Below are positions 21,918 through 61,769 of a stretch of 64,000 nucleotides of DNA, piece by piece. The translations under genes were made by a program, and so were the position numbers. Each line of letters opens with the position of its first letter. The stretch's first letter is position 1. Origin of the DNA: Paracyclopina nana (taxonomy: Eukaryota; Arthropoda; Copepoda; Cyclopoida; Cyclopettidae); contig JAGUCH010000001.1 of assembly GCA_019096065.1 (NCBI GenBank), positions 16,058,001-16,122,000 on the forward strand. The letters run 5' to 3'. A model generated the notes under the pieces. The model was not told the origin of the DNA and searched no databases. It was given only the letters and a program-made list of their open reading frames with translations.

Positions 21918-24407
21918 TTACGACACTTCAATGCAGTAAAGCTTCAATGTATCATCAAAAGATTCTCTCGAGCTCCTCAAAACCCTACAAATGCAATGAA
22001 ATTGGCACAAGACCTCCGAGGGAAACCATTGACAAAATATGCTAAATACTCGATTATTTGATAGACCTGAGTTGGTCAAGTGAACCAACTCTCCCAGTTT
22101 TTTGGCCTCGCTCTCCAGTTCACTCCACTCTTCTGTGTTGATGCTGAGCATCTTTTTGAGCAAGTCTGCCTTGTCACAAAACAATAGAGCAGCGTTGGTT
22201 CCATCCTCCACTTTTAGTGTGGCTTTTACATCGAAATTGGTCTCCACCTTGTTACCAGCATGACAGCCCACAAAACTGCACGAGCCGTGCTTGACCATTT
22301 GCCCACACGCTCCACAAGTGGCCGTAATGGACATTTTTATCACAGTCTCCACAGTAAAAAAGCAATGGAACGCTTTGCTGCTCTCAGGTGGAATAAACGA
22401 GACAAAGTCCACAGGTTGGCTGAAAATCTCCCCGTGTGAAGGGTTGACATGGCTCGACACTTTGAGAACTCTCATGCTTGAGAACAAAGTGGTCATGAGG
22501 TAGACATTGGACTTTTTTGAAATGGCCTTCACCACACAATTGAACTTGACGTGAACTCCGCGAAAGAGACCAAGCAGGTTGGCCTTCATATCCCATTTTG
22601 TAACGTAGAGAGACACAGTTGAGTGGTTTTTCAGTCTGTCTGAACTGGTTAGTTTTATCTCGATGTCAACGTGGCTGAGCAGTGAATCCTCGTTCGTTCT
22701 ACAACCTGTTGTATATTTGGACAGCTCCAGCCACTTTTCCACGATGACTCCTTCTACACTGATTAATTCTCCGCCTGGCAAGAGGTCAATGTCAGCCACG
22801 TCGTATGCATCATTCGGCGTGTACAGGCCCTTGGAAACAATCGCAAAGTCCTCCACGTCTATCACAGTTGGCTCTGATTTCATGCAATTTGCCTTTAAAA
22901 AGTTGTTCAGCAAGGGACTGAACTTTTCCTTGTGGGACTTTCTCAGGCTCATTTGACAACCGGGTAAGTAATCCAAGCCAGCTTTGGCAGGAACACGGAG
23001 AAACTTTTCCTCGTTTTTCTGCAAGCTTTTGGCAGCGATTAATACAGACATTTCTGCAGTTCCCATTCTCAGGGGATGAGATACCAATTTGACAGCCCAA
23101 GTTTCGCATCCTTCATTGGTGGAGCCTGGCAAATCTTCTGCCATTTGCAACAGTTGAAACTCTGTGACAACCAGGTAGAAATACTTCCATACGTATCTGC
23201 CTACGCTCGAGATTTCTTGGCAAGCCACAAACTTTTTGGCTCGTATCATATAGCCGGGATTGGGAAGCACTTTTTCAAAGATGACCTCGATTTTGCCAGT
23301 GTTATCGCAGATTTCGTATTGCCCCGACTCAGAGTTGATTTGTAGGTGGCCTATGACGAGGGGCAAATCCTTGATCTCATTCGAATCAAGTGTATAGTAT
23401 TTAAAACTGCAGGGGCTGTCTTTTCGACCGAATTCTTCTGTAGCAGTGTCTTGACATTCTTTGCGCGAATCGAGCTCATCGCTAATCAGCTTCCTCACGG
23501 TGTCCAAATTGCTCATACATGGCCAATTTTCACTTCCATCAGGAACATCAATGGAACATTCATGGGGATTTGATAGGAATTCATTAAGCAAACTTCTATG
23601 TGGCACTTGCTCAATTTTGAAGTCAAAAAAGTTGTGAGTGGCATCTTCAAAATGTGCGGAAGATTTGCACAACAGTTTGGCCTTCATACAGTTTTCCTTG
23701 AAAATTCGGACAGTTTTCTCTAGGTCTGTGAGAGCCTGGAAAATCTTGAGCAACTGCTTGGATGACAATGACAAATGCAGACACTTTTGTATGGTATGAT
23801 TGGCTTCAAAGTTACGGTGATCACGCTTCGAGTGCATAGATTCATCATCGTGATTTCTCGTGTCAACGCGTCCTTTTGCGCAGAGCAGTAATGCAAGTTT
23901 GCCATTTGGAAGCCTTCGCATGTGGCCATTTCGAATCACAACCTTGGAGCCACTTTGCACGGCTCGTATGTTGGTGATTACACAGAGAGTGCTCATCACG
24001 ACAGTCACTCGATTGTCGACGACAAAGACCCCAGCATCGATGCATAGGTCATTTGTCACTATTCCTTCATAGGAGACACAATCTTCGAACAAGTTTGATG
24101 TCACTTTCATCTCTTCGCTAATAGAAATTGTAGAATTAGGCTCAACCAGGAGCATTTTAATTTGGCCATGGCTCATGGACAGAGTGCTGCTCTTCAAGTT
24201 TCTCAAATCAATCAGCTTTGACCAGAACAATTCGGGATGGACTTGAATTTTCTTGAAATCTGCGCTCAAATCCTTCTCCAAAAGAATGAGGACAAAGACT
24301 GGCTTGTCGCGGTTTTCAACTTGAATTTGCAAGAAGAAACACTTTGGCTGTCCGCTTAGGTAAAACACGTGGCTCACCGCCACCAAAACACCTTTCAAAT
24401 TCACCAT
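21918..24407 (-). CDS. CTC1: CTC1-like CST complex subunit
   Basis: An intron-free ORF of 829 codons. The C-terminal half matches the layout I know from vertebrate CTC1, the largest subunit of the CST (CTC1-STN1-TEN1) complex, which binds single-stranded telomeric DNA and recruits polymerase alpha-primase for C-strand fill-in. I see a block near residues 340-430 like a CTC1 OB fold, a GLFRGVHVKF...KKSNVYLM segment near 620-650, a zinc ribbon CX2CX8CX4C near 697-714, and then LKVEDGTNAALLF followed by an EEWSEL helix. The Zn-ribbon OB fold near the C terminus is typical of CTC1 and of RPA70. At 829 aa it is shorter than the vertebrate protein (about 1200 aa), so N-terminal OB folds are reduced or lie in an unseen exon. 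The start follows an in-frame upstream TAA. A divergent RPA-like protein is the main alternative. Confidence 0.75.
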   Translation of the reverse strand: MVNLKGVLVAVSHVFYLSGQPKCFFLQIQVENRDKPVFVLILLEKDLSADFKKIQVHPELFWSKLIDLRNLKSSTLSMSHGQIKMLLVEPNSTISISEEMKVTSNLFEDCVSYEGIVTNDLCIDAGVFVVDNRVTVVMSTLCVITNIRAVQSGSKVVIRNGHMRRLPNGKLALLLCAKGRVDTRNHDDESMHSKRDHRNFEANHTIQKCLHLSLSSKQLLKIFQALTDLEKTVRIFKENCMKAKLLCKSSAHFEDATHNFFDFKIEQVPHRSLLNEFLSNPHECSIDVPDGSENWPCMSNLDTVRKLISDELDSRKECQDTATEEFGRKDSPCSFKYYTLDSNEIKDLPLVIGHLQINSESGQYEICDNTGKIEVIFEKVLPNPGYMIRAKKFVACQEISSVGRYVWKYFYLVVTEFQLLQMAEDLPGSTNEGCETWAVKLVSHPLRMGTAEMSVLIAAKSLQKNEEKFLRVPAKAGLDYLPGCQMSLRKSHKEKFSPLLNNFLKANCMKSEPTVIDVEDFAIVSKGLYTPNDAYDVADIDLLPGGELISVEGVIVEKWLELSKYTTGCRTNEDSLLSHVDIEIKLTSSDRLKNHSTVSLYVTKWDMKANLLGLFRGVHVKFNCVVKAISKKSNVYLMTTLFSSMRVLKVSSHVNPSHGEIFSQPVDFVSFIPPESSKAFHCFFTVETVIKMSITATCGACGQMVKHGSCSFVGCHAGNKVETNFDVKATLKVEDGTNAALLFCDKADLLKKMLSINTEEWSELESEAKKLGELVHLTNSGLSNNRVFSIFCQWFPSEVLCQFHCICRVLRSSRESFDDTLKLYCIEVS

Positions 24408-25072
24408 TAAGAAAAATATCGCGAAAGTGCAGGATTCACAAACTTGGATTTGTTATTGTTTACGTTTGAATTTTCCCGCAAAAGATAAATTCTCAAAGAG
24501 CCACGTCTCTATGCTTGCGGGAGCCGTGACAGCTTTTCTAAGGCAAACTACATTGGATACCGTTCGTGCATGCGCATGAAAAGATAAAACTTGGATTTTT
24601 AAAGACTTTCCAAAGCATTTTTGCTAGACGCTTAATCTAATGAAAGAGCTGAGAAGAACACTTTTGCTGTGAGAGTAGCGTAAGGTTGTCGGTTGGGTAG
24701 GTTCGGGATTAAAATACGATTCGTCAATCTTAGCAACCGTCGTTACATTATCAGCAGGCCGCGCGAGAGCCGAAGTCTTAACAGAAAGGCAAGGCCGACA
24801 GCGACGTACCGTGTGTTCGCAGCAGCCTTTCATCCAGAAGAAAGTGTTGGCCGCCGCCATTGACCCGACCCGATTCAGTAGTATACTATTTGAAGACAGC
24901 AGCAGCTACAGCTAAAATCGTCGGCCGTGGCCTTGACTAATTTGTGAGGAAGAAGAGGTTGATGTTCATCTTGGATTCGCCTAATCTGCGATCGCGTTTC
25001 CACTCACAAGTGTTTCATCAACGTGTCTCCGTCGTCGAGTTGTTGCTGGAACAGTTCACTTAAAACTCGAAG
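24408..25072. promoter_or_regulatory. Divergent promoter region between CTC1-like and VAP
   Basis: About 665 bp separate the two divergent start codons. An arthropod-type initiator TCAGT lies at 24875-24879 on plus, which would give VAP a 5' leader of about 195 bases. Just left of it is GCCGCCGCCAT, which reads ATGGCGGCGGC on minus and resembles a YY1-type housekeeping promoter site. This minus-strand ATG (24860) opens a 78-codon frame with an early GTACGT donor-like site; it may be a leader exon or may only reflect the promoter motif. Confidence 0.45.
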
Positions 25073-29577: not shown

Positions 29578-29866
29578 TGTTTCTAGCAGCATGTAGCGTC
29601 GCTATCAAAGGAGGAAAGGAACCTCGAGGAGACGAAGAATGCAACGCATAGAAGAGCATCTAAATGAAGCTGCATCGCAGCTAGGTAATCATGATATAAA
29701 AAGAAGTAAAATAAAATCACATATTCAGTATATTCAATGCAATGTTGATTCAATGGTAGTGTAACAGATACTGGTAAAGCACAAAAATTCTGCAATGGAG
29801 TCCGCTGAGAGGAGCTACGAGATGAGAGTCGAGGGAGACGTGCGCACGCGCGTGCGACTAGCAACA
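29578..29866 (-). repeat. 3' LTR (289 bp)
   Basis: Begins TGTTTCTAGC and ends CTAGCAACA on plus, with TG...CA termini that form a short inverted repeat. No difference from the LTR at 41080-41368 was seen. No AATAAA lies inside it. It contains the dyad TAGCGTCGCTA (29594-29604) and the mirrored AGCTGC-ATC-GCAGCT (29668-29682). Confidence 0.96.
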
Positions 29867-29881
29867 TCTTCCCCCCTAGAA
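29867..29881 (-). promoter_or_regulatory. Polypurine tract
   Basis: On the sense (minus) strand the bases just upstream of the 3' LTR read AGGGGGGAAGA, the purine run that primes plus-strand DNA synthesis in LTR elements. Confidence 0.85.
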
Positions 29882-30014
29882 GCTTCCAACCCCGAAAGAA
29901 AGTTCCACATAGGAAAACGGAGGTAAAAGGGTGGAATCTTCTCAACTTTGGTACTAAAATCGCGACGCGATTAAAGATCAGGGCTCAAATGACCGCGACG
30001 CGGCATGAAAATTC

Positions 30015-30020
30015 TTTATT
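30015..30020 (-). terminator. AATAAA after the second element ORF
   Basis: The sense strand reads AATAAA 28 bases after the stop of the downstream ORF, between that ORF and the 3' LTR. Because the LTR itself lacks the hexamer, this may serve the element's polyadenylation. Confidence 0.35.
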
Positions 30021-30047
30021 TTCTTAAATAAGGTTTGGCGGAGCGGC

Positions 30048-33023
30048 TCAAGCATCGGCAAAGGGCACCTCCACAAGCCTCAAGGCTTGCTCGTCTTGAA
30101 GACTCATGAAAAGGCCATCTTCTTCAAACTCGCAAATGAACGTGGCGCAGTCATGTAGAGACAACGTTCTTCTGTTGAAGAGGGCGCAAAAGCGAAAATT
30201 CTCCACCATTTTGACAAAATCTTCATCTTGATGATGATGAGCCAGATGCCCATACATTTGGCACTTCTCGCATCTAATCCACATCCTGTGGCACACATAC
30301 ATGACATGGTAGGCCGAGCGGCAAAGGGGGTACAGGCATAGAAGATGCTCTTCCTTACAATCTTTTGCCAAATGGTCTGGAGAGCCGCATTTGTCGCAGA
30401 CATGCGGGGAGAAAGCTCCCATCTTGAAATGATATTCGAGCAACATTCCCCAGTTCAGCGAGTTCAAATGTCCACCCGTAAAATCCCTCAGGAAACTGAC
30501 CAAATCTTTGTCCAAATTGTGCAAGTCGTGGGCGAATTTGTGGCCTTGAAAGAAGGTTTTCTTCGCCGGCAAAGGATGGCGGACACTGTTTGCGGCGCAA
30601 CTATCCAGCAGTACCCATTCAGCTCTCAAGGGCACGCCATGACGGCTCTCCGCCTCGGAGTGGAACTCCAACAAGTTCCAAGGCCTGCGTTGCAGCGAAG
30701 TCTTGCCAATCCCGTTAACTCCTGGCATATTAAGGAGCCTTGACAAAAGGAGACGCAGGTAACGGAGGGCGTCTGCTTTAGGTGAGCACATTTCTAGCTC
30801 CATAGCACGCGTCGCGGCTTTCCACATCAAGGCGAACGGCAAAGACATGGTGCAGAAGGTGTGCATCTTCATCTCCCTCGTCCAGTCATCAAAGGGCAAA
30901 GAGAAATCCGATTCAGCTAGGTTGATGTAGAAAGCTCGGTCAGTCAATGAAGCTCCGCCTACCGCATGCCTCTTTTCTCGTCGATCCTTGTGCACAATGA
31001 TGGGGACGGCAGGGGACTCCAAACGGACGGCCACGTAAGTAGGATTGCATTGCATGCGTCCTGGCTCCACTCCGGGCTGCGGGAATTGAGTGAGGGCCAA
31101 TAAAGTGGCATCGACATAGCTTTTTAGCTCGATTCCCATCTCGACGAATCTGCCCTCTTCATGGATTCCCGACTGCACCTTGATCACGACGTCAGATTCC
31201 AGCAGGCTCACAATGTCAGCGGGCACATGGTGATTCAAGAAACCCCGCTCATTGCCTGAATACAGGCATTGGTCCACGAGGACTACTCCATTGGCTGCTC
31301 CCAGCGCGTAGCCGGCCATGCAGAACCGAGGTTGTTCCCCCCTGCGGTTGAGCAACCCGCGGGATTCGAGGGCAGACTTGGTCCAATTTAGTGCACCCAG
31401 AGTAGCCACGCCGGAACCATTGATGGCCTCGAAAAAACCCAAATCTTGGAGCACCTCCTTCACATCGGCCCACTCTTGATCGCGCCCGTAGAACACGTAG
31501 GTCCTTCTTCCGTTCTTCCTATTGTCGTACGGTCCCGTTTCCATCTTCGCCCACTGGCTGACCTTGTCCATAGGATAATAAGCCCAGCTTTCTTTATTCA
31601 CCTGAATAATATCCCCGTCTTTGAGGGCCAATCCTCTAAGTGGGCACGACTTGGAGTGGCATGAGGTCTTGGCGTCGACGCCAGTAATGCAGGCCTCCAG
31701 ATAGGGGCAATTGTAGTCGCTGCCAGGTTGTGGGGCCTCAGTGGTGGGAGCAGGAGGCCTTACCAGGTAGGCAGGCTTGCCAGGTGGCATTGACGGGCCT
31801 GGAGCCTCCGCGTCGCGGTCGATCAAGGGCCTTTGGCCTAAAGGAGGGCAGGTGTTGGCCAGGGCTGAGGGGCTCTTCGACACAACTTTCCAGAAGTCTC
31901 TGACCCACTCCAGCGAGCCCACGGGCATGCGGTCAGAGTGCCCCAAAAACGCCATGATTTGCTCAATGGCCGACGGCGCGGAATGCAAAACTTGAGCGGC
32001 TGGGCCAGGCGTAGCTGCATCCAGAAGGAGTTTTCTCCCCAAACAATCCAAAAACGTGACGTATTTTTCAGCCACAATGTCCGCCGCCGTGCGGAGGTTG
32101 TCCGGAAGGACCCTGTAGCCCACATCTTCCTCCTCTTCTTTGCCCATTTGGTAGCTCAGGTACGGAGATCTCAAGTTGGGGTGCCATTTTGCCAAGACGT
32201 CACCGGGCAAATAGCCAGCTGCCAATGAGGCTATCCTCATCGAGTCGGCTCTCACGGCTGCGGCGCAGCTTAGGGCCTTCTCGTCTCTGGAGCGTGGGTC
32301 TCCTGCATTGGGTGGCCCATAGGCGCCCGAATCGGCCAGTATTGCCACGCTTGGATCCGCGTAGATCTCAATGAGCTTTTCTCCTTCCATCTTCAGTAGG
32401 TGATCCTCAAATTCCGCTTCCCTCAGACCTAGCATCTCCTTCATGAGTGCCTTCACCTCTAGTTGTTCGGGGGTAAGCGGTGTCGAACCTGAAAAATCAG
32501 ATACCATAGAAGGAGGTCCAGGATTTACGCGACGCGCATGTTGGCTACTGTCCTCGTCGAAGGCAGCCGGGTCTGCCTCTTCTTCTTCTTCTTGCACCCT
32601 TGGGATCGTTACGAGCATAGTTTTGAAGATGGGCTCCCTTGCTTTACTTTCCCCCCTTGACGACGGTAGCGCAATTTGTGCAGTGTCGTCGTCAACCAAA
32701 ACATTTTTACTTGTATTGGAGGATTCAGCGTCGCTGCCACCAGTAGTAGATCCCGATGAAGATGAAGTTGTCGATGCATCGCTACGTCCAGTCCCCTTGG
32801 AGGATTCAGATCCAGTAGACGATGAGCTAGACGACCTCGCCCTCCTCCGCTTCTTAGGTTTTGACGCTTTGGGCATCGATTCGTCACCAGATTTGGATTC
32901 AAATGACTCGTTGTTCTCCATTATTACGACATCTTCTTCCATGGGGACGGGTTGTTCACTGGTTGGTGGATTTGGAGCAGCGACGCTGGACCCCTGAGAC
33001 TTAGATTTAATTTTCTTACCCAT
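30048..33023 (-). CDS. Downstream ORF of the BEL/Pao element, zinc-knuckle protein
   Basis: A 991-codon ORF in the env position, 240 bp after the pol stop; the first ATG is at 33023 (MGKKIKSKS) and the frame extends only slightly further upstream through a GTG. It is not an envelope: no signal peptide or membrane helix is evident. Order of parts: basic and Ser-rich N terminus with a nuclear-signal-like KPKKRRRAR near residue 58; an acidic run near 147; a Cys-rich patch near 438-463; a long central part without known motifs; then a CX2CX4HX4C knuckle at about 876-889 and a related CX2CX4HX4H at about 918-931. The knuckles suggest nucleic-acid binding, perhaps a second gag-like protein. Function is unknown. 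It could be translated from a spliced RNA. It carries ten of the GCG-N-CGC dyads. Confidence 0.85.
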   Translation of the reverse strand: MGKKIKSKSQGSSVAAPNPPTSEQPVPMEEDVVIMENNESFESKSGDESMPKASKPKKRRRARSSSSSSTGSESSKGTGRSDASTTSSSSGSTTGGSDAESSNTSKNVLVDDDTAQIALPSSRGESKAREPIFKTMLVTIPRVQEEEEEADPAAFDEDSSQHARRVNPGPPSMVSDFSGSTPLTPEQLEVKALMKEMLGLREAEFEDHLLKMEGEKLIEIYADPSVAILADSGAYGPPNAGDPRSRDEKALSCAAAVRADSMRIASLAAGYLPGDVLAKWHPNLRSPYLSYQMGKEEEEDVGYRVLPDNLRTAADIVAEKYVTFLDCLGRKLLLDAATPGPAAQVLHSAPSAIEQIMAFLGHSDRMPVGSLEWVRDFWKVVSKSPSALANTCPPLGQRPLIDRDAEAPGPSMPPGKPAYLVRPPAPTTEAPQPGSDYNCPYLEACITGVDAKTSCHSKSCPLRGLALKDGDIIQVNKESWAYYPMDKVSQWAKMETGPYDNRKNGRRTYVFYGRDQEWADVKEVLQDLGFFEAINGSGVATLGALNWTKSALESRGLLNRRGEQPRFCMAGYALGAANGVVLVDQCLYSGNERGFLNHHVPADIVSLLESDVVIKVQSGIHEEGRFVEMGIELKSYVDATLLALTQFPQPGVEPGRMQCNPTYVAVRLESPAVPIIVHKDRREKRHAVGGASLTDRAFYINLAESDFSLPFDDWTREMKMHTFCTMSLPFALMWKAATRAMELEMCSPKADALRYLRLLLSRLLNMPGVNGIGKTSLQRRPWNLLEFHSEAESRHGVPLRAEWVLLDSCAANSVRHPLPAKKTFFQGHKFAHDLHNLDKDLVSFLRDFTGGHLNSLNWGMLLEYHFKMGAFSPHVCDKCGSPDHLAKDCKEEHLLCLYPLCRSAYHVMYVCHRMWIRCEKCQMYGHLAHHHQDEDFVKMVENFRFCALFNRRTLSLHDCATFICEFEEDGLFMSLQDEQALRLVEVPFADA

Positions 33024-33263
33024 TTTGAGTCGATGTTGCCCCGTTGAGAACACGAACTAAACTGGTTTGTTGTGTTGGCGGAGCGGAAGCGGCAAAGCTG
33101 ATTGTTTACTTTGTCGGAAACGCTACTCTCCCAACCTATTTGCTCAACCTCTTGCTTTTGCGTCGTTATTTGTTTACCAACAATTTGGTAAGTTGCTTAA
33201 AATCGCCAGGGTATTAATTTATTGCAATACTGTTCAAAGGGATAAAATCAGTGTTTTGTTTGT

Positions 33264-36200
33264 TCACATTTCTTGAATGAGCCGGGATACAGGTTTGGTT
33301 TTTCTTTTAGTTTGCAACGGAGCTGGCAACGTCGAGTTTGCCGGGGCGTGCTGCGCTGCAGTGCTGACGACGGGGCGCTTGAGGACGTCTTGTAGCCGTT
33401 GGAATTCTACCGAATCAAACAGTGATCTCGTTTCCTCTTGTGTTGCCACCAAATCCTCCTGATGGAGATCGTGCATAGTTCTGGCTGCCGATACCTTTCG
33501 AATCATGTCTGCAGTGTCATCTGGTTCAATGCAGCTAAGTGGCACGAGGACTTCTACCGATTTCTCATAAAAAACCGGAGTATCACTGTGAGGTACCATC
33601 ATACGGACGTAAGCGCGTCTTGCTATTCCGTCGGAGTCTTCATAGGTGCGATGAACCCGGGCCACCGGCCATTGGAATCTCTTCTTGAAGAGCTCCTTGT
33701 CGAGTACTATGACAATGTCTCCCGACTTGACCGCGGCGCGGTGGTTTTTCCAGGTACCAAGTTTTTGCATTTTATGTATTATGTGCTGAGTCCAACACTT
33801 CCACATGTCCTGCAGGCAAGCATGAGTTTGCTTGAGTACGTGGTCTCGCTTGGTGATGTCCGCAGGATCAATGACAGGTACGAGATCTCCAGGGGGTCCT
33901 CGAGTGAGGAAATGATTCGGGGTGATAATCATGCCTTCAATGTCGCCCAATGGTCTGCCGTTTATAAAACCTTCGGCTTTGATGATTAGCGTCTTAAAAA
34001 GCTCCATGGGCGTGATAGTAGAGCAGAAATACCGGTAGAATGTCTTTTTGAATATTTTCACTGCTGCTTCCACTAAACCATTTGCGTGTGGTGTATGTGG
34101 TGGTGACAGCGTCCAATGTAGTACACCAATTTGAGCACCATACTGTCTCAAATCCTCCCAGGATAAGTGGTGAAGTTTATCGACTAGCTCGTGATAGCGT
34201 TCATTCGCTGCGATTTCGTTTCTTAGACCGATGTAATTAGATCCTCCGTCGCTGCGCAGCAGATATGGGACGCCTCGCCTTGCTACAAATCTGTCCAGAG
34301 CTCTACTTAGTTCTTCCGTGGTTAAATCGTAGACTTCCTCCACGTGAATGGCTTTGGTGTGGCGGCAGACAAATATGGCCACATACATGTCATAGGAGCT
34401 ACGCAAAAAAGACACCTTGAATGGGCCACAAAAATCCGTGCTGACATATTTGAAAGGGAGTAAATCACCCAGCGGTATAGCGTTGGCGGGTAGCAGACCC
34501 ATGTGAGGTGGGACTGCCACGGCCTTTCTCCTCTGGCAAATGCCGCACCTCTTAAGGATTGATTTCATGAGTTTTGAGGCTGAAATTACATGGTGTGTGA
34601 TCTGTGCGTCGCACAAGTATCTTGCAGTGCCATAACCACATCCCACTTGGTGATGAATTTTGTTGAGGAATGCTTTCGCAAGAGGGCCCATGAGAATGAG
34701 CTGCTGCCTTCCAATCCACTGAACTTTGGAGTTGGAGAGCCTGCCTTTGGTTCTAAGCTCTCCATAGTATCCAATTATGGGGTCTAAAGAGGCTAACTTG
34801 GACTTTGGTGGCCAACTTTTGTTGCGGAGGAAATAATCAAATTCGTCCCCTAGATACTTTTGTTGTTGCGTCGCAATCAGTTGTATTTCCGCCCTTTTTA
34901 GCTCTTCTGGAAATAAAGGCCCTTTAAACTTAAATAGCCCCCTCTGCATAAATCTTTTCGCTCTAGCCCAAATCCTGATTATTCGATCGTAGTTGGAGAA
35001 CTTTTCGACTGACAGGCCTTGCAGGTTCCTGTAACACTTCCACCGATAAGCGACGCTTTCGTTGGGTTGTAGGTGGGGAGGAATCACAAATAAGGTTAGA
35101 GCCACAGCAGGTTTGGCTTTCATAGCTTTTAGCGGCTTCAACTTTTCGGCATTTTGGGCGACAACTGCGGCCAGTTCGTCATCTGTGGGTTTGATCTTGG
35201 TGACAGGCCACTCACTTTCTAAATTTTTCAGATAGTTTGGCCCGTTTATCCACAACGTGCTGGCGGCTAATTCAACAGGAGTACAAGTGCGAGTGGCGTA
35301 GTCTGCAGGATTACATTTGGTGTTGACTTTCCTCCATGGCCATTCTCCCACCGCCTCACAGATCTTAGTTACTCGTCGGCCAACGTACTGAGCCCAGTTG
35401 CATGCGGGTTTGCTTATCCAGGTGAGGACACAGGTGGAATCGGTCCAGAAGACGACCTTATCCACCCTATCCAACTCTCTTATCAGATTGCTGGCGTACA
35501 TGGCCCCCAGGACGGCAGCGTTCAGCTCCATCAACGAGATGGCTCGAACTTCCTTCAGCGGTTTCACCTGCTTTCTGGAGCCTACAATGGTGACCTGTAC
35601 ATCATCGTTGGGGTAAGTCACTCTCATGTATGCTACCGCTGCTAAGGCTAGCTCCGAGGCGTCTACGAAAATGTGGAGCTGCACAGAATTTGCGTATTGC
35701 GTGCGGGTGGTGCGAGGAAATCTAAGTAGCTCCATGTGTTGATTGTCTGCGACATACTGAGCAAAGTCTTTTACGATGTCTTGTACACCGTCGTCCTCGA
35801 TATAATCCAACGCAGTATCCCAATCGATTGGTATCGTGCGTCGCGCCATGTGGACTCGTTGAAGTAGGAGCGCGCCGCGCAGAGTTATGGGGTCGATGAG
35901 TCCTAAAGGATCATATTGCGTAGGGACATATTTTGTCATTGATCTCAAGGTGGTTGGTTTCCCTGCATTGCTATCTGGAATTGGAGGATATATGATTTGG
36001 TCAGACACTGTGTCTATGTACAATCCCAGTGCTTTAGTCACGTGACTCTCGTTTGGTTCTATGGCGACGCCAGCGATTCTCAAATCCTCCGGCACGTCTT
36101 CTAGAACAGCGGGATGTGAACTTCCCCACTTTCTGAATGTGAGATCGGCCTGCTCTCCTATCTCTCTTATTTCTTTGATAGCCTGGATTGCTTGTGCTTC

Positions 36201-39200
36201 GGTCTCAAATCCGGCGACCAAGTCATCAACATAGAGTGATTCATTCAAGGCTTTATATCCCAGCGGGTGTGAGACTTGATAATTTGCAATATGATGCTTG
36301 ATGGCAAATGTGGCCATGCAAGGTGCCGATGCAGTGCCAAATACTACTGACGAAGCCTCGTAGTGGTTGCCTTGCCAGATGAACCTCTGATATTTCCGCG
36401 ACGCGGGGTCCACCTTGAATCTCAGGAACATCTTACTAATGTCTGCTACTACTAAAATAGGGGCAGCTCTTGCTCTCAATAGCACGTTATGCACATCGCT
36501 CTGCAGCTTTGGCCCTGGTAGTAGCGCGTCATTTAGACTTTTTCCGTCGTGCTTCCTTGCTCCATCAAATACGAGTCTCACTGGCATGGAGGGCTTATCT
36601 AGCCTGATTACTAGAAGCCAATCGAGGTACCTTCCATCATCCAGGTCGTCTAAATCTGGGTCTAGAATTCGAATGAAACCTAACTCTAGCCATTCTTCGA
36701 TCTCTGCCTTGGTCTTGTGATAAGTGTCCGGCTGCCATAGGAGAAGCCTCCTTTCCAAAGCCGAGGTGTCCTTCAAGACTTTGAGGCGGTTCGAGCGGAA
36801 TGCGGGTTCTCCGTCTTTCCACATGAGGTCCATTTGCAGAGCCCTGCTGCTGAGTCTAGTGACTGTGCGATTTAAGATGTCCAGGGCTTTTTGCTCGTTT
36901 ATACTCATGCGTTTGGTTTCAGTGACGGGGTAGGTGTCGACTCTATCCGGTTCCCATATGGCCTTGATTATTTCGGGTGCAGGGCCATTGTGTCCGCCGC
37001 ATGCGTCGCATGGAGGAGGATAGCTACTTTCTACTTGGTATGCTTGGCTTGGTATTACTGCTGTATGCATGAGGTGAACAGGGTCCTGCAGCTTGAAGAC
37101 TTGATTAGAGTAGGTGACCACCCTGCCTAACCTGATGTCTACCACGTAGGGTTCGTTGGGCTTGTCGTGCACGATACGCTTGACCTTCATTAGCTCAAAT
37201 TGATCTATTCCCAGAATAATATCCGCGACGCGGTTGGTGGCGAAATCTGGGAAGTGCAGCTTAGCTAAGTCGTGAAACTTTTTCTTCAACATGGTGATAG
37301 GGGGCATCTTTATAGTGTCTGGTATCTCTGGTGTGGTGTGTGCGACAAACTCGTATTCTTCCCCTTCTATCGTGGTCATGTTCATGCTCACTATCTTGCT
37401 GGGGATCCACCTGGTTGCGGTGAGCATTCTCAGGAGTTGATCATCCCTCGGCCCGTCTAAACCTAGTTTTTTGGCCACCGACTCCCTTATGTATGAGTTC
37501 TGCGCGCCGCTATCCACAAACACGTTAACCAGCATTTTGCTATTTGGCCTTTTTGGGTTGCTTATGTGGACGGGGACAACATTAAAGCAGCACGTAGGAT
37601 TTCCCTGGTTTTTGTAGACAGGTTGTTTCGACTTGCTTATCTTTTTATTTCCCCCCTGTTTTGGATGCGGCGCATTTGGTGTCGTTACTGTCAAGTTGAT
37701 TTGTTCTTGGTCGTCTTGCACGCTCAACGAGTGTAATTGTTGCTGAATGTGCGCTAACGAGTTGTTCATTTCATTCAGGCGTACAGCGGTGTTGTTAGTG
37801 TCAGCATGGTGTGGTTGAATTGGAGCTTGCTGTGCCGATTTATTAAGTTGCGCTTTCTTTTTCCAAACTTTGTGAATTAAGGTGTGATGATCATTGCCCT
37901 TGCAAACTTCGCACACGATCTGCTGCGCACAGTCAGCGAAGCTATGTATGCCGAGTAGGCATTTGAAGCAGGCCCTTATTCTGTGTAATTTCGTCATTCG
38001 ATTTTGATCGGACATTGCTAAGAAAGCGGGACATTCATAGAGCTTGTGGTTGCTCCTGCATTGAGGACACGAAGCGTACGTGCCTTTTTTATCTGGCATG
38101 ACCTGAAGTAGGTGAACTTCATCAGTGAGGTCTATCAGCTCTTCTTCGAAACTATCGTCCGGTGTTGGCATCGCGTCTTGCTCTACAGAAGTGTGCATAA
38201 CTGGTTGCTCTGTTTGAAGTGCGTTGACTGCCTTGTAACGTTTGTTTTTATCTTTTAGGAATTGCCCCTTCACGGCCATTTTATTGCGGTGCAATCCCAG
38301 GACAGCTTTGACATAATTGTCAAAATGTTGGAAGTTGAAGCTGATGAGGCCTCGATTGACCAGCCAAGAGTCCATGTGCTCCTGCGTCGCAGGGTCCACA
38401 TTCAGGCAAGAAAACACAAAGGTGTCGAACTGACCGTTGGTCAATGCTTGTTGCCCGTGCATGTAGGTAATTTGCAAGAATATGTTCCTCACTTCGCTTT
38501 GGCATAGCATTAGGCTTTCATAACTTTTCTTGTTCATAGGTGGCAGGGCCTTTAGTTGCGCAAGCAGATAGCTCAAGTGTCTTTCTTCATTGCCATAGTG
38601 AGCGTCGAGCTCCTCGAGAGCCGCGATGTAAGTTTCATAACTTGCTTGTTTATTTGCCACAGCGTAGTGTGCGGGGCCTCCCATGGTGAGGCTGCAAAGT
38701 CTGGCCCATTTTTCGTGAAATGACACCGTAGTGTTTTCATGAACGAAGGTACGGAAGTTTTCTCTGAATGTGAAGTATTGACTGTCATCCCATCCGTCGA
38801 ACTTGACTAGCGCTATGGGTTCCATCTTTATGTTAGGTTTGACACCAGGGCCAGGGGCCGTGTCACCCACGTCTTTCCAGAAGGCATCCTGTTTCCTCTG
38901 TTGTAGACTGGGCGAGGGAGTCTGCGTCGCAGTTAACGTCACTGGTGCTGGAGAGGTGAGGACATTGTTTCGTTTTAAAATGGAGACCGAAGGTGACGAA
39001 GTCGCCGCAGAATTTTCTCGATGTGCGACCAATTCTTTCAGCGCGTGAAGCAGATCTTTGGCCTCGTGATACGTTTCCACGTCGTCTTTGGGCAGTGTCG
39101 AGGCCGGAACTAAAGTTAGTAGGGCCTCCCTTCTCGCCTGATATCTACCCATTGCAAACAGAGACTTTTGTTGTGCTGCCTGAATAAAGCTGTTAGACTC

Positions 39201-40997
39201 CATCCCTGAGATGGCAGCTTTCATAGCGTCTACTTGCGTCGCAAGGGCTTTCACCGACTCGTGATAGTCTTTCACCAGGGCGTTCCATGCTTGTTTTTGA
39301 GCCGGAGCTAAATCTTCCCTGGGAGCCAAAGGATCTCTATATGTGTCGTATGAATTAAAAGTTACTTGTTTGTTTGAATTTCTCCATGAGCTTGCCGTCG
39401 CCATGTTCGGTGGAGGTTGTGAAGTATCAGGCAGCCTGTTGATGTTGTAAGTGTGCGAAGGGACCTCGAACGTTTTATTGAGGTAAGCCGTGCGCCAGTC
39501 CTTAGGGAGGTTAGGATTCTCGTGGCCAGGTTGAGTGTCTCTAAGAAAATTGTTCTGTTCGATTTTGTTTCTGTAGAACTCCTGCTGGGACAGCTCTGCC
39601 TCTTTTAGCTTGTAGGCTGCTAACGTCATGGTTACGATCTTTCCTGCCTGGTTCAATGTGATGTGTCCCGGTGGAGGAGCAGCCCAGAGCTGTTGCGAAG
39701 AGCCCTGTGCGCTTGTTCTGCTGCTTTCGCTGGAGATGGATTCAGGGCCGTGCGAGGCTTCTGACAGAATCGGGGTTTGTCTGAGGTGCGTTTCTTGGCG
39801 GGCAAGCAGCTCTTGGTCCTTCATCATGCGTAGCATTTTGGTGAGGTACTGCATGCTGGCGTTGTAGCATCGATCATAAACTCGCTTTATATCCGCTGAG
39901 GGAGTTTGAAGGCTTGCACCGCAAGCTAGCATATACTCGTCCATCGTTTCCTCAAAGTGAGACACGTAGAGTTGTAGATCTTGGCTGCGTTCCTTCAGAT
40001 ATTCAAGCGTAAGGGACCGTTTCGACTTAAAATCTCTTTTTATTTGCGAAAGTTGTTGACCCGCTTCATCGAAGAGCTCGACGAAATAGAGAGCTAGCCT
40101 TTCCACATCATGCAGCGCTTGCCTCTGTCCGGCAGTGGGAAGTGTTTTCCCCTTACCAACCTGCTTGCTATTCCCCTTTACTTTTACGGTTTTTGGAGCT
40201 TTTATTTTCTCAATGAGCCGCCTAGGGTCCGACGGGTCGTCTTGTGTCTCAAACGGTGACAATTGTTCCTGATTTCGAGGCCCCGTGGAGGGTCCTGCTG
40301 CCCCTAAGCTGTCCCCAGGCTGTCCAGAGGGAGCTGGCACGTGCGGAGCAGTTGATGCGTTGCTTGACATACCGGGTAACTGATCGGGGTTAGACGTAGG
40401 ACCTCCCTGGGCTACGATGGTATTATCGTCTGCGGCGGACGAATTCCCCCCTGGGCCCTTTGGAGCGTCGCTCTGCTTGGGCTCTTCGTGCAAGCTATCG
40501 TGTGTCTGACCTTGCAAGGTCGGCACGTTTACATATGGGGTCCCTTGTCTAGCTGCTACGTGCCCCGCAGTGGACGTGGAGCTAGGCAACGCCCTGCTAA
40601 GTAGCTGCTGCCTCGCTAGCTCGTACTCCGATTTTGAGGGCTCTCTCAGAACCTGAGGATTCACCCCTGACCCTGCAGCTGGTGTATCCGCGATGAGTGA
40701 TACGCCACTTAGGTCCGCCCAATCTTGGGTGGGAGTCCTTTGTATGCGGCTTCTCGAAGCGAAAGCATCCTGATCTTGATCTCCCGACGACATAACCTTT
40801 GATTTTTGTAGCTCTGCTAGAATTGTGGGTGTACTTTTACCTCTGCCCAAAGCTCTTTTCTTCGCTTGAGTGTAGGGGGACTTTTCTGGATCCGTGGGAG
40901 TCAGTTGCCAGGGTGACTCCTTCCGTTGCCGTTTGCTGTGCCGTGTAGGTTCCGGTGCGGCTGCCTTTGCGGCTGGCTTAAGCGTCCTTCTCGGCAT
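33264..40997 (-). CDS. BEL/Pao Gag-Pol polyprotein
   Basis: A single uninterrupted frame of 2577 codons; ATG at 40997 lies 83 bases inside the 5' LTR. Approximate order: basic low-complexity start; a predicted coiled coil near 292-365; a DUF1759-like gag core near 730-900; zinc knuckles near 975-1035, including CFKCLLGIHSFADC; aspartic protease with FVDSGAQNSYI near 1158; reverse transcriptase with ADISKMF near 1519 and YVDDLV near 1589; RNase H with FVDAS near 1772 and WTDST near 1850; integrase with an HHCC zinc site near 2135-2155 and catalytic Asp/Asp/Glu near 2185, 2250 and 2307; and a DUF5641-like C-terminal part near 2440-2470. All catalytic residues I can check are present, so the protein looks functional. 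It is large for the group, mainly through about 730 residues before the gag core. No frameshift separates gag and pol, as usual for BEL/Pao. Confidence 0.97.
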   Translation of the reverse strand: MPRRTLKPAAKAAAPEPTRHSKRQRKESPWQLTPTDPEKSPYTQAKKRALGRGKSTPTILAELQKSKVMSSGDQDQDAFASRSRIQRTPTQDWADLSGVSLIADTPAAGSGVNPQVLREPSKSEYELARQQLLSRALPSSTSTAGHVAARQGTPYVNVPTLQGQTHDSLHEEPKQSDAPKGPGGNSSAADDNTIVAQGGPTSNPDQLPGMSSNASTAPHVPAPSGQPGDSLGAAGPSTGPRNQEQLSPFETQDDPSDPRRLIEKIKAPKTVKVKGNSKQVGKGKTLPTAGQRQALHDVERLALYFVELFDEAGQQLSQIKRDFKSKRSLTLEYLKERSQDLQLYVSHFEETMDEYMLACGASLQTPSADIKRVYDRCYNASMQYLTKMLRMMKDQELLARQETHLRQTPILSEASHGPESISSESSRTSAQGSSQQLWAAPPPGHITLNQAGKIVTMTLAAYKLKEAELSQQEFYRNKIEQNNFLRDTQPGHENPNLPKDWRTAYLNKTFEVPSHTYNINRLPDTSQPPPNMATASSWRNSNKQVTFNSYDTYRDPLAPREDLAPAQKQAWNALVKDYHESVKALATQVDAMKAAISGMESNSFIQAAQQKSLFAMGRYQARREALLTLVPASTLPKDDVETYHEAKDLLHALKELVAHRENSAATSSPSVSILKRNNVLTSPAPVTLTATQTPSPSLQQRKQDAFWKDVGDTAPGPGVKPNIKMEPIALVKFDGWDDSQYFTFRENFRTFVHENTTVSFHEKWARLCSLTMGGPAHYAVANKQASYETYIAALEELDAHYGNEERHLSYLLAQLKALPPMNKKSYESLMLCQSEVRNIFLQITYMHGQQALTNGQFDTFVFSCLNVDPATQEHMDSWLVNRGLISFNFQHFDNYVKAVLGLHRNKMAVKGQFLKDKNKRYKAVNALQTEQPVMHTSVEQDAMPTPDDSFEEELIDLTDEVHLLQVMPDKKGTYASCPQCRSNHKLYECPAFLAMSDQNRMTKLHRIRACFKCLLGIHSFADCAQQIVCEVCKGNDHHTLIHKVWKKKAQLNKSAQQAPIQPHHADTNNTAVRLNEMNNSLAHIQQQLHSLSVQDDQEQINLTVTTPNAPHPKQGGNKKISKSKQPVYKNQGNPTCCFNVVPVHISNPKRPNSKMLVNVFVDSGAQNSYIRESVAKKLGLDGPRDDQLLRMLTATRWIPSKIVSMNMTTIEGEEYEFVAHTTPEIPDTIKMPPITMLKKKFHDLAKLHFPDFATNRVADIILGIDQFELMKVKRIVHDKPNEPYVVDIRLGRVVTYSNQVFKLQDPVHLMHTAVIPSQAYQVESSYPPPCDACGGHNGPAPEIIKAIWEPDRVDTYPVTETKRMSINEQKALDILNRTVTRLSSRALQMDLMWKDGEPAFRSNRLKVLKDTSALERRLLLWQPDTYHKTKAEIEEWLELGFIRILDPDLDDLDDGRYLDWLLVIRLDKPSMPVRLVFDGARKHDGKSLNDALLPGPKLQSDVHNVLLRARAAPILVVADISKMFLRFKVDPASRKYQRFIWQGNHYEASSVVFGTASAPCMATFAIKHHIANYQVSHPLGYKALNESLYVDDLVAGFETEAQAIQAIKEIREIGEQADLTFRKWGSSHPAVLEDVPEDLRIAGVAIEPNESHVTKALGLYIDTVSDQIIYPPIPDSNAGKPTTLRSMTKYVPTQYDPLGLIDPITLRGALLLQRVHMARRTIPIDWDTALDYIEDDGVQDIVKDFAQYVADNQHMELLRFPRTTRTQYANSVQLHIFVDASELALAAVAYMRVTYPNDDVQVTIVGSRKQVKPLKEVRAISLMELNAAVLGAMYASNLIRELDRVDKVVFWTDSTCVLTWISKPACNWAQYVGRRVTKICEAVGEWPWRKVNTKCNPADYATRTCTPVELAASTLWINGPNYLKNLESEWPVTKIKPTDDELAAVVAQNAEKLKPLKAMKAKPAVALTLFVIPPHLQPNESVAYRWKCYRNLQGLSVEKFSNYDRIIRIWARAKRFMQRGLFKFKGPLFPEELKRAEIQLIATQQQKYLGDEFDYFLRNKSWPPKSKLASLDPIIGYYGELRTKGRLSNSKVQWIGRQQLILMGPLAKAFLNKIHHQVGCGYGTARYLCDAQITHHVISASKLMKSILKRCGICQRRKAVAVPPHMGLLPANAIPLGDLLPFKYVSTDFCGPFKVSFLRSSYDMYVAIFVCRHTKAIHVEEVYDLTTEELSRALDRFVARRGVPYLLRSDGGSNYIGLRNEIAANERYHELVDKLHHLSWEDLRQYGAQIGVLHWTLSPPHTPHANGLVEAAVKIFKKTFYRYFCSTITPMELFKTLIIKAEGFINGRPLGDIEGMIITPNHFLTRGPPGDLVPVIDPADITKRDHVLKQTHACLQDMWKCWTQHIIHKMQKLGTWKNHRAAVKSGDIVIVLDKELFKKRFQWPVARVHRTYEDSDGIARRAYVRMMVPHSDTPVFYEKSVEVLVPLSCIEPDDTADMIRKVSAARTMHDLHQEDLVATQEETRSLFDSVEFQRLQDVLKRPVVSTAAQHAPANSTLPAPLQTKRKTKPVSRLIQEM

Positions 40998-41059
40998 ATG
41001 GCTGGGATAGATCCTGAAGTCTCAAATTTAACCCCTACCTTCTTCTAGGATTGAGAGAG

Positions 41060-41077
41060 GCCCCACGTTGGGCGCCA
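41060..41077 (-). promoter_or_regulatory. Primer binding site, tRNA-Lys type
   Basis: Two bases inside the 5' LTR the sense strand reads TGGCGCCCAACGTGGGGC, an 18-base match to the 3' end complement of the tRNA-Lys1,2 primer used by several retroelements. Confidence 0.92.
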
Positions 41078-41079
41078 GA

Positions 41080-41368
41080 TGTTTCTAGCAGCATGTAGCG
41101 TCGCTATCAAAGGAGGAAAGGAACCTCGAGGAGACGAAGAATGCAACGCATAGAAGAGCATCTAAATGAAGCTGCATCGCAGCTAGGTAATCATGATATA
41201 AAAAGAAGTAAAATAAAATCACATATTCAGTATATTCAATGCAATGTTGATTCAATGGTAGTGTAACAGATACTGGTAAAGCACAAAAATTCTGCAATGG
41301 AGTCCGCTGAGAGGAGCTACGAGATGAGAGTCGAGGGAGACGTGCGCACGCGCGTGCGACTAGCAACA
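41080..41368 (-). repeat. 5' LTR (289 bp)
   Basis: The promoter-bearing LTR for this minus-strand element; same length and apparently the same sequence as 29578-29866. It is followed on plus by the GATGC duplication at 41369-41373. It carries one copy of the GCG-T-CGC dyad (41096-41106). Confidence 0.96.
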
Positions 41369-60048: not shown

Positions 60049-61226
60049 TCAAACGGTCAAATGCGGCAAATCAACCAGAATCCACGTGAACAGCCTTTTG
60101 GCCACGACCTCGACTGGCTTGTATTTGAGTGAGTTGTAGCCATCTTTGTCGATCCTCTTGGCACCCGAGTACAAGTACTTGAACCGGTCAGGATTGGCCT
60201 TGTCCTTGCTATGCTTGAGCATCCGGTACCGAGCGATGTTGGCCGGGTATCTCGAGATGTACAGCTTCTTCTGCCTCAGTCTGTTTGACATGTCATCATC
60301 TTCTCCACCCCAGCCCCAGAACATGTTGGAAAAGCCATTCACTTGTCTGAACTGGTCCACAGTCATGGCTGACACTCCGCCAAAGATGTCATCATAGGGA
60401 AGACGGTACAAAAAGCTGCATTAAAAACGGGGAATCAATAAAGAAGCGTTCTCATTAAGCCTGAGACTTTTTACTTGTTGATGGCCACTGACATGTGCCT
60501 CGGCTGGACAGGACAGCTGTAGAGATTTCGGTCATCCTCTGGAAGCAAATCAACATCATGGAAGATGAAGCACTGGAAGTCGTAGCTTTTGAGCGCTTCA
60601 GCAGCGCCCACATTCATCAGCATTGCCCGATTAAAAGGCTCAGCGCCATGTTGTTCAACAATGAAAATCCCATAATCCAACTGCTGTCTCGGCAGAAAAG
60701 AGTGCATATGAAGCAGAAATGTCCGCAAATGCTCTTCCCTGTCACGATACGGAACTATGATGGCAACACGATGTCTGGCAGCGCATTTGGGAGGCTTGTA
60801 GCGGCCTCCCGAGGACAAAAAGTCGAACTTGGCCTCGATTTGCTCCATCGTGGGAATTTCGGTCGTTTCCACCTTGACAGCTCCGTGGAGGCCAGGAGGA
60901 ATCATGGGGCAGACTTTGAGGCTTGCCACAGTAGCATTGGCGTCCTCTGCCAACGTCAAATTGTTCGAGGCTGAGGTCGTTGAGGCCACAGTGGCCTCGG
61001 TTGGGTCATCTTGAGGCGTGGGCTCGAGGTATTCAGAGAGGCTGTCAAGGATGCCAGAGCTCCTCTCGCTCTTCTCCAGGTAGAAAAGCGTCCTCGACTG
61101 GCCTGGCCTCCGCTGTTTTTCACTCACTTGCAGCAGACTCAAATATTGGAGGCCAATGAGGCAAAAGATGATGGCGATCAGAGCCTTGAGAGTCAAATAC
61201 GTCCTCGAGACGCCGGAAGCAGGCAT
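60049..61226 (-). CDS. Beta-1,4-GalNAc/Gal transferase (GT7 family)
   Basis: Two exons, 61226-60475 and 60415-60049, separated by a 59-bp GT-AG intron, give 372 residues, usual for the family. It is a type II Golgi membrane protein: short cytoplasmic end, membrane anchor at about 15-32, a stem to about 130, then the GT7 catalytic domain. Visible motifs: VAIIVPYRDREEHL near 147, FNRAMLMNVG near 195, the metal-binding DVD at 224-226, FGGVSAM at 262-268, and the acceptor-site WGWGGEDDD at 284-292. The residue matching bovine B4GALT1 Tyr289 is Ile261, with identical spacing from DVD; Ile or Leu here is associated with UDP-GalNAc use in invertebrate enzymes. I therefore predict a beta-1,4-N-acetylgalactosaminyltransferase that makes LacdiNAc or arthroseries glycolipids. 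The stop is followed by a repeat-bearing 3' region. Confidence 0.93.
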
Positions 61227-61769
61227 TTTGTGATGAGTAGATTTGTGGTGAGATTGTTCGTCGTCCCCATCGGCCTCTGGAGGCCGCCAGAGCTCCAGGA
61301 GAGACCAGAATGATGGAGGCTCTTGAGTACTTTATGCAGCAACAACAAGGATCACTTTTGCGGGATCGAATTTCAAGACTGCCACTATTTTGCTCGAGCG
61401 AAAAACAAGCTCGATCTCACTAAAGAAACCTTTTTTAAACAATTTTATTTTACATTTAATTACTGTTTTAGTAGTATTGAATTGAAGTGAAATTGGCTAC
61501 ATTAGTGTTTCTTGGCGGAGTTTCCTTTAAATTAACAAAATTGAAATGAGCCTTAGGTTTGTATGCTCGCTTTACCAATTCAGAACTGACGTCAGGCAGA
61601 GGAACGTCCTGTAGTTGTTATCAATTCCGCCAAAATGGAGCGAAAAATGCCAAAATGGCAAAACAGCTACCAGAGGTCCATTTAAGAGTTCATGCAGTAA
61701 GTGATTATAAAAATAAAGGAACTTGTTTTTCAATTGAAAAAACTGGAAGCGCTAGACTATTTCTGTATC
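61227..61769. promoter_or_regulatory. Upstream region of the glycosyltransferase
   Basis: The spacer between symplekin's 3' end and the glycosyltransferase start, both on minus; it should contain the latter's promoter and leader. I see no clear TATA box or extra gene. Confidence 0.4.

What the first reader, a model, noticed from the sequence alone, without database searches (positions are those of the whole stretch)
29594..41106. Element-wide set of covarying GCG-N-CGC dyads in a retrotransposon
I count 27 GCGNCGC cores in 11.8 kb, where about 3 would be expected from uniform base use. In 23 of them the next two bases on each side are also complementary (about 2 expected), and these outer pairs differ between sites: TT/AA, CC/GG, CA/TG, AA/TT, TG/CA, GA/TC, CT/AG, AT/AT, TA/TA. 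Five coding-region sites have six-base arms (32257, 33730, 34603, 37000, 38381, 39233 region), and one noncoding site has seven (29958). They occur in both LTRs, the noncoding 3' region and both ORFs, in different codon phases, so amino-acid constraint does not explain them. At least three bare cores were seen elsewhere in the window, none with complementary flanks. Either DNA symmetry is selected (a dimeric protein, chromatin or silencing site) or the RNA forms many tiny stems with a GNC triloop, perhaps for packaging by one of the zinc-knuckle proteins.
Basis: seen in the sequence. Interest (0 to 1): 0.88.

Follow-up and report, generated by a model that had tools for sequence, protein, structure and literature searches.

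The report
Lineage-specific RNA hairpin code in retrotransposons
A virus-like jumping gene in what is probably a copepod genome carries about two dozen tiny hairpin sequences scattered along its RNA, and several related lineages in the same genome carry similar arrays with a different hairpin loop, which looks like a private address label that an element-encoded protein reads.

Summary
The BEL/Pao element (29578-41368, coding on the minus strand) has 27 GCGNCGC cores, 23 with two more complementary pairs; the other 52 kb of the window has 3 cores and no such dyad. Codon- and dinucleotide-preserving shuffles give 0.3 dyads in pol (14 observed) and 0.2 in ORF2 (5 observed). A reverse-transcriptase search finds 131 related places in the same genome. 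In the loci read, close relatives keep the GCG core; other lineages carry arrays with other loops: GC[A(A/U)U]GC, GC[CAD]GC, CC[GNC]GG, N[GAAA]N, C[GNNC]G, C[GAAAN]G. Asymmetric loops lie almost only on the sense strand, so these are hairpins of the element's RNA, not double-stranded DNA sites. One array-less lineage (2 loci) has Gag zinc knuckles but no ORF2 found (0 of 42 rows), pointing to the triple-zinc-knuckle ORF2 protein. Against this, L067/L070 have ORF2 but no array above shuffles, and the L066 subclade has an array but no ORF2 hit. I read it as a dispersed, lineage-private self-recognition code for RNP assembly, packaging or export. No binding was tested.

The parts
29578..29866 (-). 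3' LTR (289 nt, TG...CA), identical to the 5' LTR; contains the dyad at 29596
   Evidence: 5-bp duplication GATGC flanks the element
41080..41368 (-). 5' LTR, contains the dyad at 41098
33264..40997 (-). gag-pol open frame, 2577 aa, BEL/Pao type; carries 16 cores, 14 of them full dyads
38460..38780 (-). DUF1759 (Gag region)
   Evidence: E 3.9e-10
37872..38069 (-). three CCHC/CCHH-type zinc knuckles of Gag
   Evidence: (pattern match only)
37359..37529 (-). aspartic protease
   Evidence: E 3.8e-6
36135..36482 (-). reverse transcriptase (RVT_1)
   Evidence: E 3.1e-9
35436..35945 (-). Peptidase_A17 (Pao retrotransposon peptidase)
   Evidence: E 1.5e-30
33594..33833 (-). DUF5641 (that it is the end of BEL/Pao integrases is recalled)
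   Evidence: E 1.2e-13
30048..33053 (-). ORF2, 1001 aa, unknown family; carries 7 cores, 5 full dyads; candidate reader
   Evidence: no relative scored in the protein database
30231..30398 (-). three tandem zinc knuckles near the C-terminus of ORF2, metal ligands invariant in 16 aligned sequences (window plus 15 loci)
29960..29970 (-). hairpin TCGCGTCGCGA (sense), 3' noncoding region
29993..30003 (-). hairpin CCGCGTCGCGG (sense), 3' noncoding region
30590..30600 (-). hairpin TTGCGCCGCAA (sense)
31808..31818 (-). hairpin CCGCGACGCGG (sense)
32258..32268 (-). hairpin CTGCGCCGCAG (sense), 6-bp arm
32726..32736 (-). hairpin CAGCGACGCTG (sense)
32978..32988 (-). hairpin CAGCGTCGCTG (sense)
33731..33741 (-). 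hairpin CCGCGCCGCGG (sense)
34604..34614 (-). hairpin GTGCGACGCAC (sense), kept in 6 of 7 group-A elements (gap in the seventh)
34866..34876 (-). hairpin TTGCGACGCAA (sense)
35048..35058 (-). hairpin AAGCGTCGCTT (sense)
35870..35880 (-). hairpin GCGCGGCGCGC (sense)
36062..36072 (-). hairpin TGGCGTCGCCA (sense)
36396..36406 (-). hairpin CCGCGTCGCGG (sense), kept in 6 of 7 group-A elements
37001..37011 (-). hairpin ATGCGACGCAT (sense), core kept in 7 of 7 group-A elements, full dyad in 6
37223..37233 (-). hairpin CCGCGTCGCGG (sense)
37665..37675 (-). hairpin ATGCGCCGCAT (sense)
38382..38392 (-). hairpin CTGCGACGCAG (sense)
38922..38932 (-). hairpin CTGCGACGCAG (sense)
39234..39244 (-). hairpin TTGCGACGCAA (sense)
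40463..40473 (-). hairpin GAGCGACGCTC (sense)
29594..29604 (-). hairpin TAGCGACGCTA (sense) in 3' LTR
41096..41106 (-). hairpin TAGCGACGCTA (sense) in 5' LTR, 16 nt before its inner end

Best explanation
The element is a young, apparently intact BEL/Pao LTR retrotransposon. Its RNA carries about 25 copies of one small hairpin, NN-GC[GNC]GC-NN: a 4-bp stem whose outer two pairs are free and a fixed G-N-C triloop. The hairpins are spread over gag, pol, ORF2, the 3' noncoding region and the LTR (shown by sequence statistics). Several related lineages in the same genome carry the same kind of array with a lineage-specific loop and closing pairs (shown). I infer that each lineage's own RNA-binding protein, most likely the triple-zinc-knuckle ORF2 protein and otherwise the Gag zinc knuckles, binds many of these hairpins at once. 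It would thereby select the lineage's own RNA from host and rival RNAs to build an RNP that is packaged or exported. The array works like dispersed RNA packaging signals, with a loop that changes between lineages as reader and hairpin evolve together (inferred).
For: Dyads exceed codon-preserving shuffles in every array-bearing lineage tested. Observed versus mean (maximum) of 300 shuffles: A reverse-transcriptase (RT) loci 49 v 1.2 (6); A7 10 v 0.5 (3); E 14 v 0.8 (4); C 114 v 8.8; D 49 v 3.9; B GAAA 55 v 12.8; F 14 v 1.9 (5); L065 7 v 0.6 (4). Window ORFs, 2000 shuffles: 14 v 0.30 (3) and 5 v 0.20 (3). The lineage-by-motif table is near-diagonal, with host DNA near zero for the four tight triloop motifs. 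Stems end after the same two variable pairs in five sets. Loop polarity. The motif recurs in stretches not used to define it: L060 8/9, L061 12/13, L062 9/13, L063 10/12, L072 3/3, L073 2/4, L071 2/3, L068 9/13. ORF2 lies downstream of 90 of 106 RT rows tested outside the L064 lineage and of 0 of 42 in it. The two L064-lineage loci show no array although their Gag keeps three knuckle patterns.
Against: No binding, expression or packaging data. Isolated stems are weak (-0.6 to -2.5 kcal/mol for 6 tried), and context folding does not favour them (mean stem probability 0.35 against 0.30 with shuffled flanks, 26 sites, 9 above 0.5). The G-U against A-C wobble test is not significant over both outer pairs (p = 0.37) nor at pair 2 (p = 0.065); only a post hoc subset gives p = 0.014 (correcting a miscount). 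L067 and L070 have ORF2 but no array above shuffles. RT, Gag and ORF2 trees agree in their main forks, so they do not tell which protein reads the hairpin. ORF2 and 3' noncoding hairpins would also sit in any spliced ORF2 mRNA. Single-stranded cDNA hairpins are not excluded.
Confidence: 0.58

Rival explanations
1. Dispersed packaging signals read by the Gag zinc knuckles alone, as in single-stranded RNA viruses whose coat protein reads many hairpins; ORF2 has another job.
For: Three knuckle patterns of Gag in all eight loci checked. The L066 subclade has an array without a detected ORF2, and L067/L070 have ORF2 without an array above shuffles. Zinc fingers of the nucleocapsid domain bind viral genomic RNA (passage of PMC10309623).
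Against: The L064/L069 lineage keeps the Gag knuckles, has no ORF2 hit in 42 rows tested and shows no array in 2 of 2 loci.
Confidence: 0.28
2. Sites for an element-coded nuclear export or RNA-coating factor, ORF2 acting like the CERV protein of Cer1 or like Rev, multimerising along unspliced genomic RNA.
For: ORF2 lies downstream of pol, was not found in the L064 lineage, and carries zinc knuckles near its end. CERV has a possible C4 zinc loop, and its invariant cysteines are needed for gRNA foci and export (PMC10309623, abstract and section 15). Spacing in the window is slightly more even than random (CV 0.70; 2.7% of 5000 random placements as even), which fits coating.
Against: No sequence link to CERV was tested. 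Hairpins also lie in ORF2 itself, so a spliced ORF2 mRNA would carry them too.
Confidence: 0.3
3. A dyad in double-stranded DNA bound by a dimeric host protein (chromatin, silencing, insulator).
For: Group A dyads are close to strand-symmetric and cannot by themselves tell RNA from DNA (centre base A 32, T 39, C 15, G 13 among dyads).
Against: Free but complementary outer pairs are not a protein-dimer footprint (general knowledge). Relatives' loops are polarised with the element's sense strand. One host factor would not explain different motifs in lineages of one genome.
Confidence: 0.05
4. A mutational product: reverse-transcriptase strand switching at small hairpins makes perfect palindromes.
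For: Such processes perfect imperfect palindromes (general knowledge).
Against: It would not fix a lineage-specific loop, would not stop after two outer pairs, and does not explain loci without an array.
Confidence: 0.03

Closest known systems
Dispersed RNA packaging signals of ssRNA viruses and HBV (reviewed in PMC6281560; passages read)
   Same: Many hairpins spread over the genomic RNA, a shared recognition motif and varying sequences around it; the review suggests similar mechanisms may occur with Gag-like proteins.
   Different: Found here in LTR retrotransposons, with a strict loop and stem length, and with a different loop in different lineages of one genome. Coat-protein binding is reported there, not tested here.
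CERV of Cer1 in C. elegans (PMC10309623; abstract, section 15 and passages read)
   Same: Retrotransposon accessory protein with a possible zinc loop that colocalises with the element's genomic RNA and is needed for its export.
   Different: Cer1 is an element of another host. The passages read report no hairpin array, and no sequence relation was tested.
BEL/Pao LTR retrotransposons
   Same: DUF1759, aspartic protease, RT, Peptidase_A17, DUF5641, TG...CA LTRs, 5-bp target duplication.
   Different: Extra 1001-aa ORF2 with three zinc knuckles and the hairpin array; neither is known to me as a BEL/Pao feature.
Retroviral packaging signal (psi), recalled
   Same: RNA hairpins recognised by Gag zinc knuckles (general knowledge).
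   Different: Psi is local, near the 5' end; here about 25 sites run along the whole element.

Membership tests
BEL/Pao LTR retrotransposon | Pao-type RT and Peptidase_A17 with DUF1759 and DUF5641 (that these define the group is recalled) | tested here: met
BEL/Pao LTR retrotransposon | Two LTRs with TG...CA ends and a short target-site duplication | tested here: met
   LTRs 289 nt, identical; GATGC on both sides
Dispersed RNA packaging signals | Multiple dispersed hairpins sharing a loop motif, above chance given coding | tested here: met
Dispersed RNA packaging signals | Located on the packaged (sense) RNA strand | tested here: met
   strand-polarised loops in lineages D, B, L065; group A itself is symmetric and uninformative
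Dispersed RNA packaging signals | Hairpins fold in the genomic RNA | tested here: inconclusive
   context folding 0.35 against 0.30 with shuffled flanks
Dispersed RNA packaging signals | Bound by the coat or Gag protein and promote assembly | not testable with these tools
   needs binding and assembly assays
CERV/Rev-like export system | Element-coded accessory RNA-binding protein | tested here: inconclusive
   ORF2 with three zinc knuckles; RNA binding not shown
CERV/Rev-like export system | Required for nuclear export of unspliced RNA | not testable with these tools
   needs experiments
Dimeric double-stranded DNA binding site | No preference for one strand of the element | tested here: not met
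   D 38/47 v 1/5; A[GAAA]U 26/39 v 0/3; C[GA...]G 10/23 v 0/6; for group A itself inconclusive

The most novel reading that the evidence does not exclude
Most ORF2-bearing BEL/Pao lineages of this genome write a private hairpin word, repeated one to nearly three times per kilobase along their RNA, and read it with their own ORF2 zinc-knuckle protein. It is a self/non-self code that keeps dozens of co-resident elements from packaging or exporting each other's RNA, with rapid word change between sister lineages.
Probability: 0.38. Interest if true: 0.95.

Novelty: new variant of a known kind. Interest (0 to 1): 0.87.

Why it matters
Dispersed packaging signals in RNA viruses are usually loose motifs (my general knowledge). 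Here the motif is strict, lies in coding sequence, exceeds codon-preserving shuffles several- to many-fold, and changes between lineages that share one host, so the genome is a natural experiment on RNA-protein specificity. It makes two questions directly testable: how co-resident retroelements keep their RNAs apart, and whether a retroelement RNA can be marked along its whole length rather than by one leader signal. It also exposes an undescribed protein family (ORF2) that may read short RNA hairpins with changeable specificity.

Tried and rejected
Rejected: dsDNA dyad (loop polarity); amino-acid constraint (shuffles); CpG richness alone (element CpG o/e 0.84 against 0.72 outside, and only the GCG core shows outer symmetry). 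I first thought hairpin type tracked ORF2 rather than RT phylogeny (note); trees agreed in their main forks, so I dropped it. ORF2 structure prediction without relatives failed (mean pLDDT 33). The reversed-sequence control is uninformative by construction and is not used. The wobble test held a miscount (20 for 19); one search redoes it. The nematode SL1 pattern was absent. No relatives came from viral contigs and none of ORF2 from the protein database (one search used a half-length piece, which excludes full-length relatives; both scored only the 8000 or so candidates sharing most words). Single-locus signals are weak or near the shuffle level for group B (L022-24, L029, L032, L044) and for L053, L054, L028, L039; there the pooled groups carry the case. 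A possible long-stem motif with loop GNNGC in L067/L070 (13 places listed, 8 with stems of 5 or more) was not tested against shuffles.

Rows dropped: identical contexts (8 bases each side) were counted once. L030, L035, L037 and L058, close copies of loci kept, were left out of the groups, which otherwise hold homologous sites and are not independent. One search scanned 31 of 70 loci. One search used 106 of the 131 rows (the 20 rows of the L064 lineage and 5 partial rows left out) and 42 rows (16 partial rows of that lineage left out); 16 of the 106 had no ORF2 hit. Group E also holds the A7 loci L021 and L051.

Literature: only listings were seen for (61 rows shown; two searches showed 15 of 113 and 15 of 413). 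No title or abstract start among them reports such an array in an LTR element. Passages were seen of PMC6281560 and PMC12789967; abstract, section 15 and passages of PMC10309623.

Full report
OBSERVATION. The element has 27 GCGNCGC cores and 23 have both outer pairs complementary; the rest of the window has three cores and no dyad. The symmetry belongs to this core: 6 of 181 other one-base-gap dyads in the element extend to five pairs. Shuffles that keep protein, codon usage and dinucleotides give at most 3 dyads where pol has 14 and ORF2 has 5; the bare core count alone is extreme in pol but not in ORF2 (7 against a shuffle maximum of 8).

ANATOMY. The element is flanked by 289-nt identical LTRs with TG...CA ends and a GATGC duplication, so it inserted recently. 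On the minus strand it encodes a 2577-aa gag-pol with BEL/Pao domains and a 1001-aa ORF2. The C-terminal half of ORF2 aligns in 16 sequences (window plus 15 loci) and holds three zinc knuckles whose metal ligands are invariant. Pfam finds a zinc knuckle in 9 of 16 and nothing else but a second knuckle model; the best solved structures by sequence are LIN-28 and retroviral knuckles at weak E-values (0.005 to 1). No ORF2 relative scored in the protein database.

HOST. The genome is 92 Mb in 10 contigs. Exons in the window match CTC1 and the N-terminal region of glycosyltransferase family 7. The best hit of the latter that bears an organism name is Tigriopus californicus, a copepod (57% identity), so a copepod is likely but not proven.

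RELATIVES. An RT search finds 131 matches in the same genome, some of them fragments. Seven elements of group A (RT identity 67-100%) carry the GCG core in both their RT and ORF2 loci. Other lineages carry arrays with other cores: group C GC[A(A/U)U]GC, group D GC[CAD]GC, group E CC[GNC]GG, group B GAAA tetraloops plus G[CAA]C triloops, group F (L066, L068) C[GNNC]G, and L065 C[GAAAN]G. The element A7 (L021/L051) mixes GC[GNC]GC and CC[GNC]GG.

SPECIFICITY. One search gives dyads per core for eight motifs in eleven sets. Each array-bearing set is dense in its own motif and near background in most others: group C 127 of 145 for its own, 1 of 5 for group A's; group A RT loci 49 of 58 for its own, 0 of 2 for group C's. 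Exceptions: group C has 8 of 23 for group D's motif, group D 3 of 8 for group C's, group B 4 of 17 for group D's. Host DNA of the window, both strands, has 0/6, 0/2, 0/20 and 1/28 for the four tight triloop motifs; the looser motifs N[GAAA]N, G[CAA]C, C[GNNC]G and C[GAAAN]G have host background (16/244, 9/120, 38/202, 3/23). Observed dyads exceed the maximum of 300 codon-preserving shuffles in ten of ten tests.

SHAPE OF THE HAIRPIN. Counting outward from the core, Watson-Crick pairs are found in 113, 104, 47, 27 of 126 sites (group A), 121, 113, 50, 44 of 126 (C), 39, 39, 19, 17 of 47 (D), 25, 23, 4, 5 of 28 (E with A7) and 31, 31, 14, 7 of 39 (B, A[GAAA]U). So the unit is a 3- or 4-bp stem on a fixed loop in these sets, with at most a small excess at the third outer pair.

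RNA OR DNA. Group A is close to strand-symmetric. In group D the middle loop base is A on the sense strand: 23 of 27 GC[CAG]GC are dyads, and the single GC[CTG]GC is a dyad; in all, 38 of 47 against 1 of 5 for reverse-complement loops. In group B A[GAAA]U gives 26 of 39 against 0 of 3, G[GAAA]C 9 of 17 against 0 of 2, C[GAAA]G 7 of 31 against 0 of 9, and G[CAA]C 17 of 33 against 2 of 32. This polarity follows the element's coding strand, so the unit acts in single-stranded sense nucleic acid, most simply the element's RNA. The wobble test gives little support (p = 0.37 over both outer pairs), and predicted folding in context gives none, so the stems may need the protein.

EVOLUTION. In aligned group A loci 28 site columns carry the core in two or more elements and 23 are private to one. 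The outer pairs at shared sites are mostly unchanged (25 and 21 of 28 invariant at pairs 1 and 2, against 16 and 4 at pairs 3 and 4). Over five alignments clean two-sided changes occur at 7 of 113 shared columns, one more has two Watson-Crick types plus a mismatch, and one-sided changes to G-U or to mismatches also occur. Many sites are thus gained and lost whole while the array is kept.

WHICH PROTEIN. ORF2 lies 2.5-10 kb downstream of 90 of 106 RT rows tested outside the L064 lineage and of 0 of 42 rows tested in it. That lineage has three Gag knuckle patterns but no array in L064 and L069. This favours ORF2. Two things are against it. The L066 subclade has an array but no ORF2 hit in 5 RT rows, unless its ORF2 was missed; each ORF2 search scored only part of its candidates (86 of 211, 93 of 205). 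And L067 and L070 have ORF2, but the scan found no array above its shuffles; a later look found some long-stem hairpins with loop GNNGC, not tested. Trees of RT, Gag-protease and ORF2 agree in their main forks.

CONCLUSION. Shown: a dispersed hairpin array, selected beyond coding constraint, with a lineage-specific loop, and sense-strand polarity where the loop can show it. Inferred: an element-coded reader, probably ORF2, using the array to tell its own RNA from others during RNP assembly, packaging or export. The nearest known working principle is dispersed packaging signals (PMC6281560, passages read). Membership in that class is not established, because binding was not tested.

Noticed in passing
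window 30048-33053: ORF2 is an undescribed protein family: 112 and 99 match rows in this genome (some split or partial), none scored in the large protein database, and Pfam sees only zinc knuckles.
   Followed up: partly
G000:C3:2265355 and relatives: A separate BEL lineage with a pol frame of about 1400 aa, 12 rows at 95% RT identity or more and no ORF2 hit nearby in 42 rows tested; possibly recently active.
   Followed up: partly
G000:C2:12808034-12809131 (minus): An ORF2-like stretch on the opposite strand about 2 kb upstream of the RT at C2:12811269 (plus); it could be a rearrangement or a neighbouring element.
   Followed up: no
L067, L070: Some long-stem hairpins (5-9 bp) with loop GNNGC, possibly another lineage motif of a different build.
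   Followed up: partly
window 21921-24452 and 60474-61331: Exons matching CTC1 and Glyco_transf_7N lie on either side of the element; the latter resembles copepod proteins.
   Followed up: partly
G000, 62 places of PF03732: A different gag-like family (many open frames of 365 or 384 aa, near-identical scores) is repeated over the genome.
   Followed up: no
G000:C1:464235-464896 and 997359-997686: Tandem repeats whose units contain GCGNCGC; they inflate simple genome-wide counts of the core.
   Followed up: no
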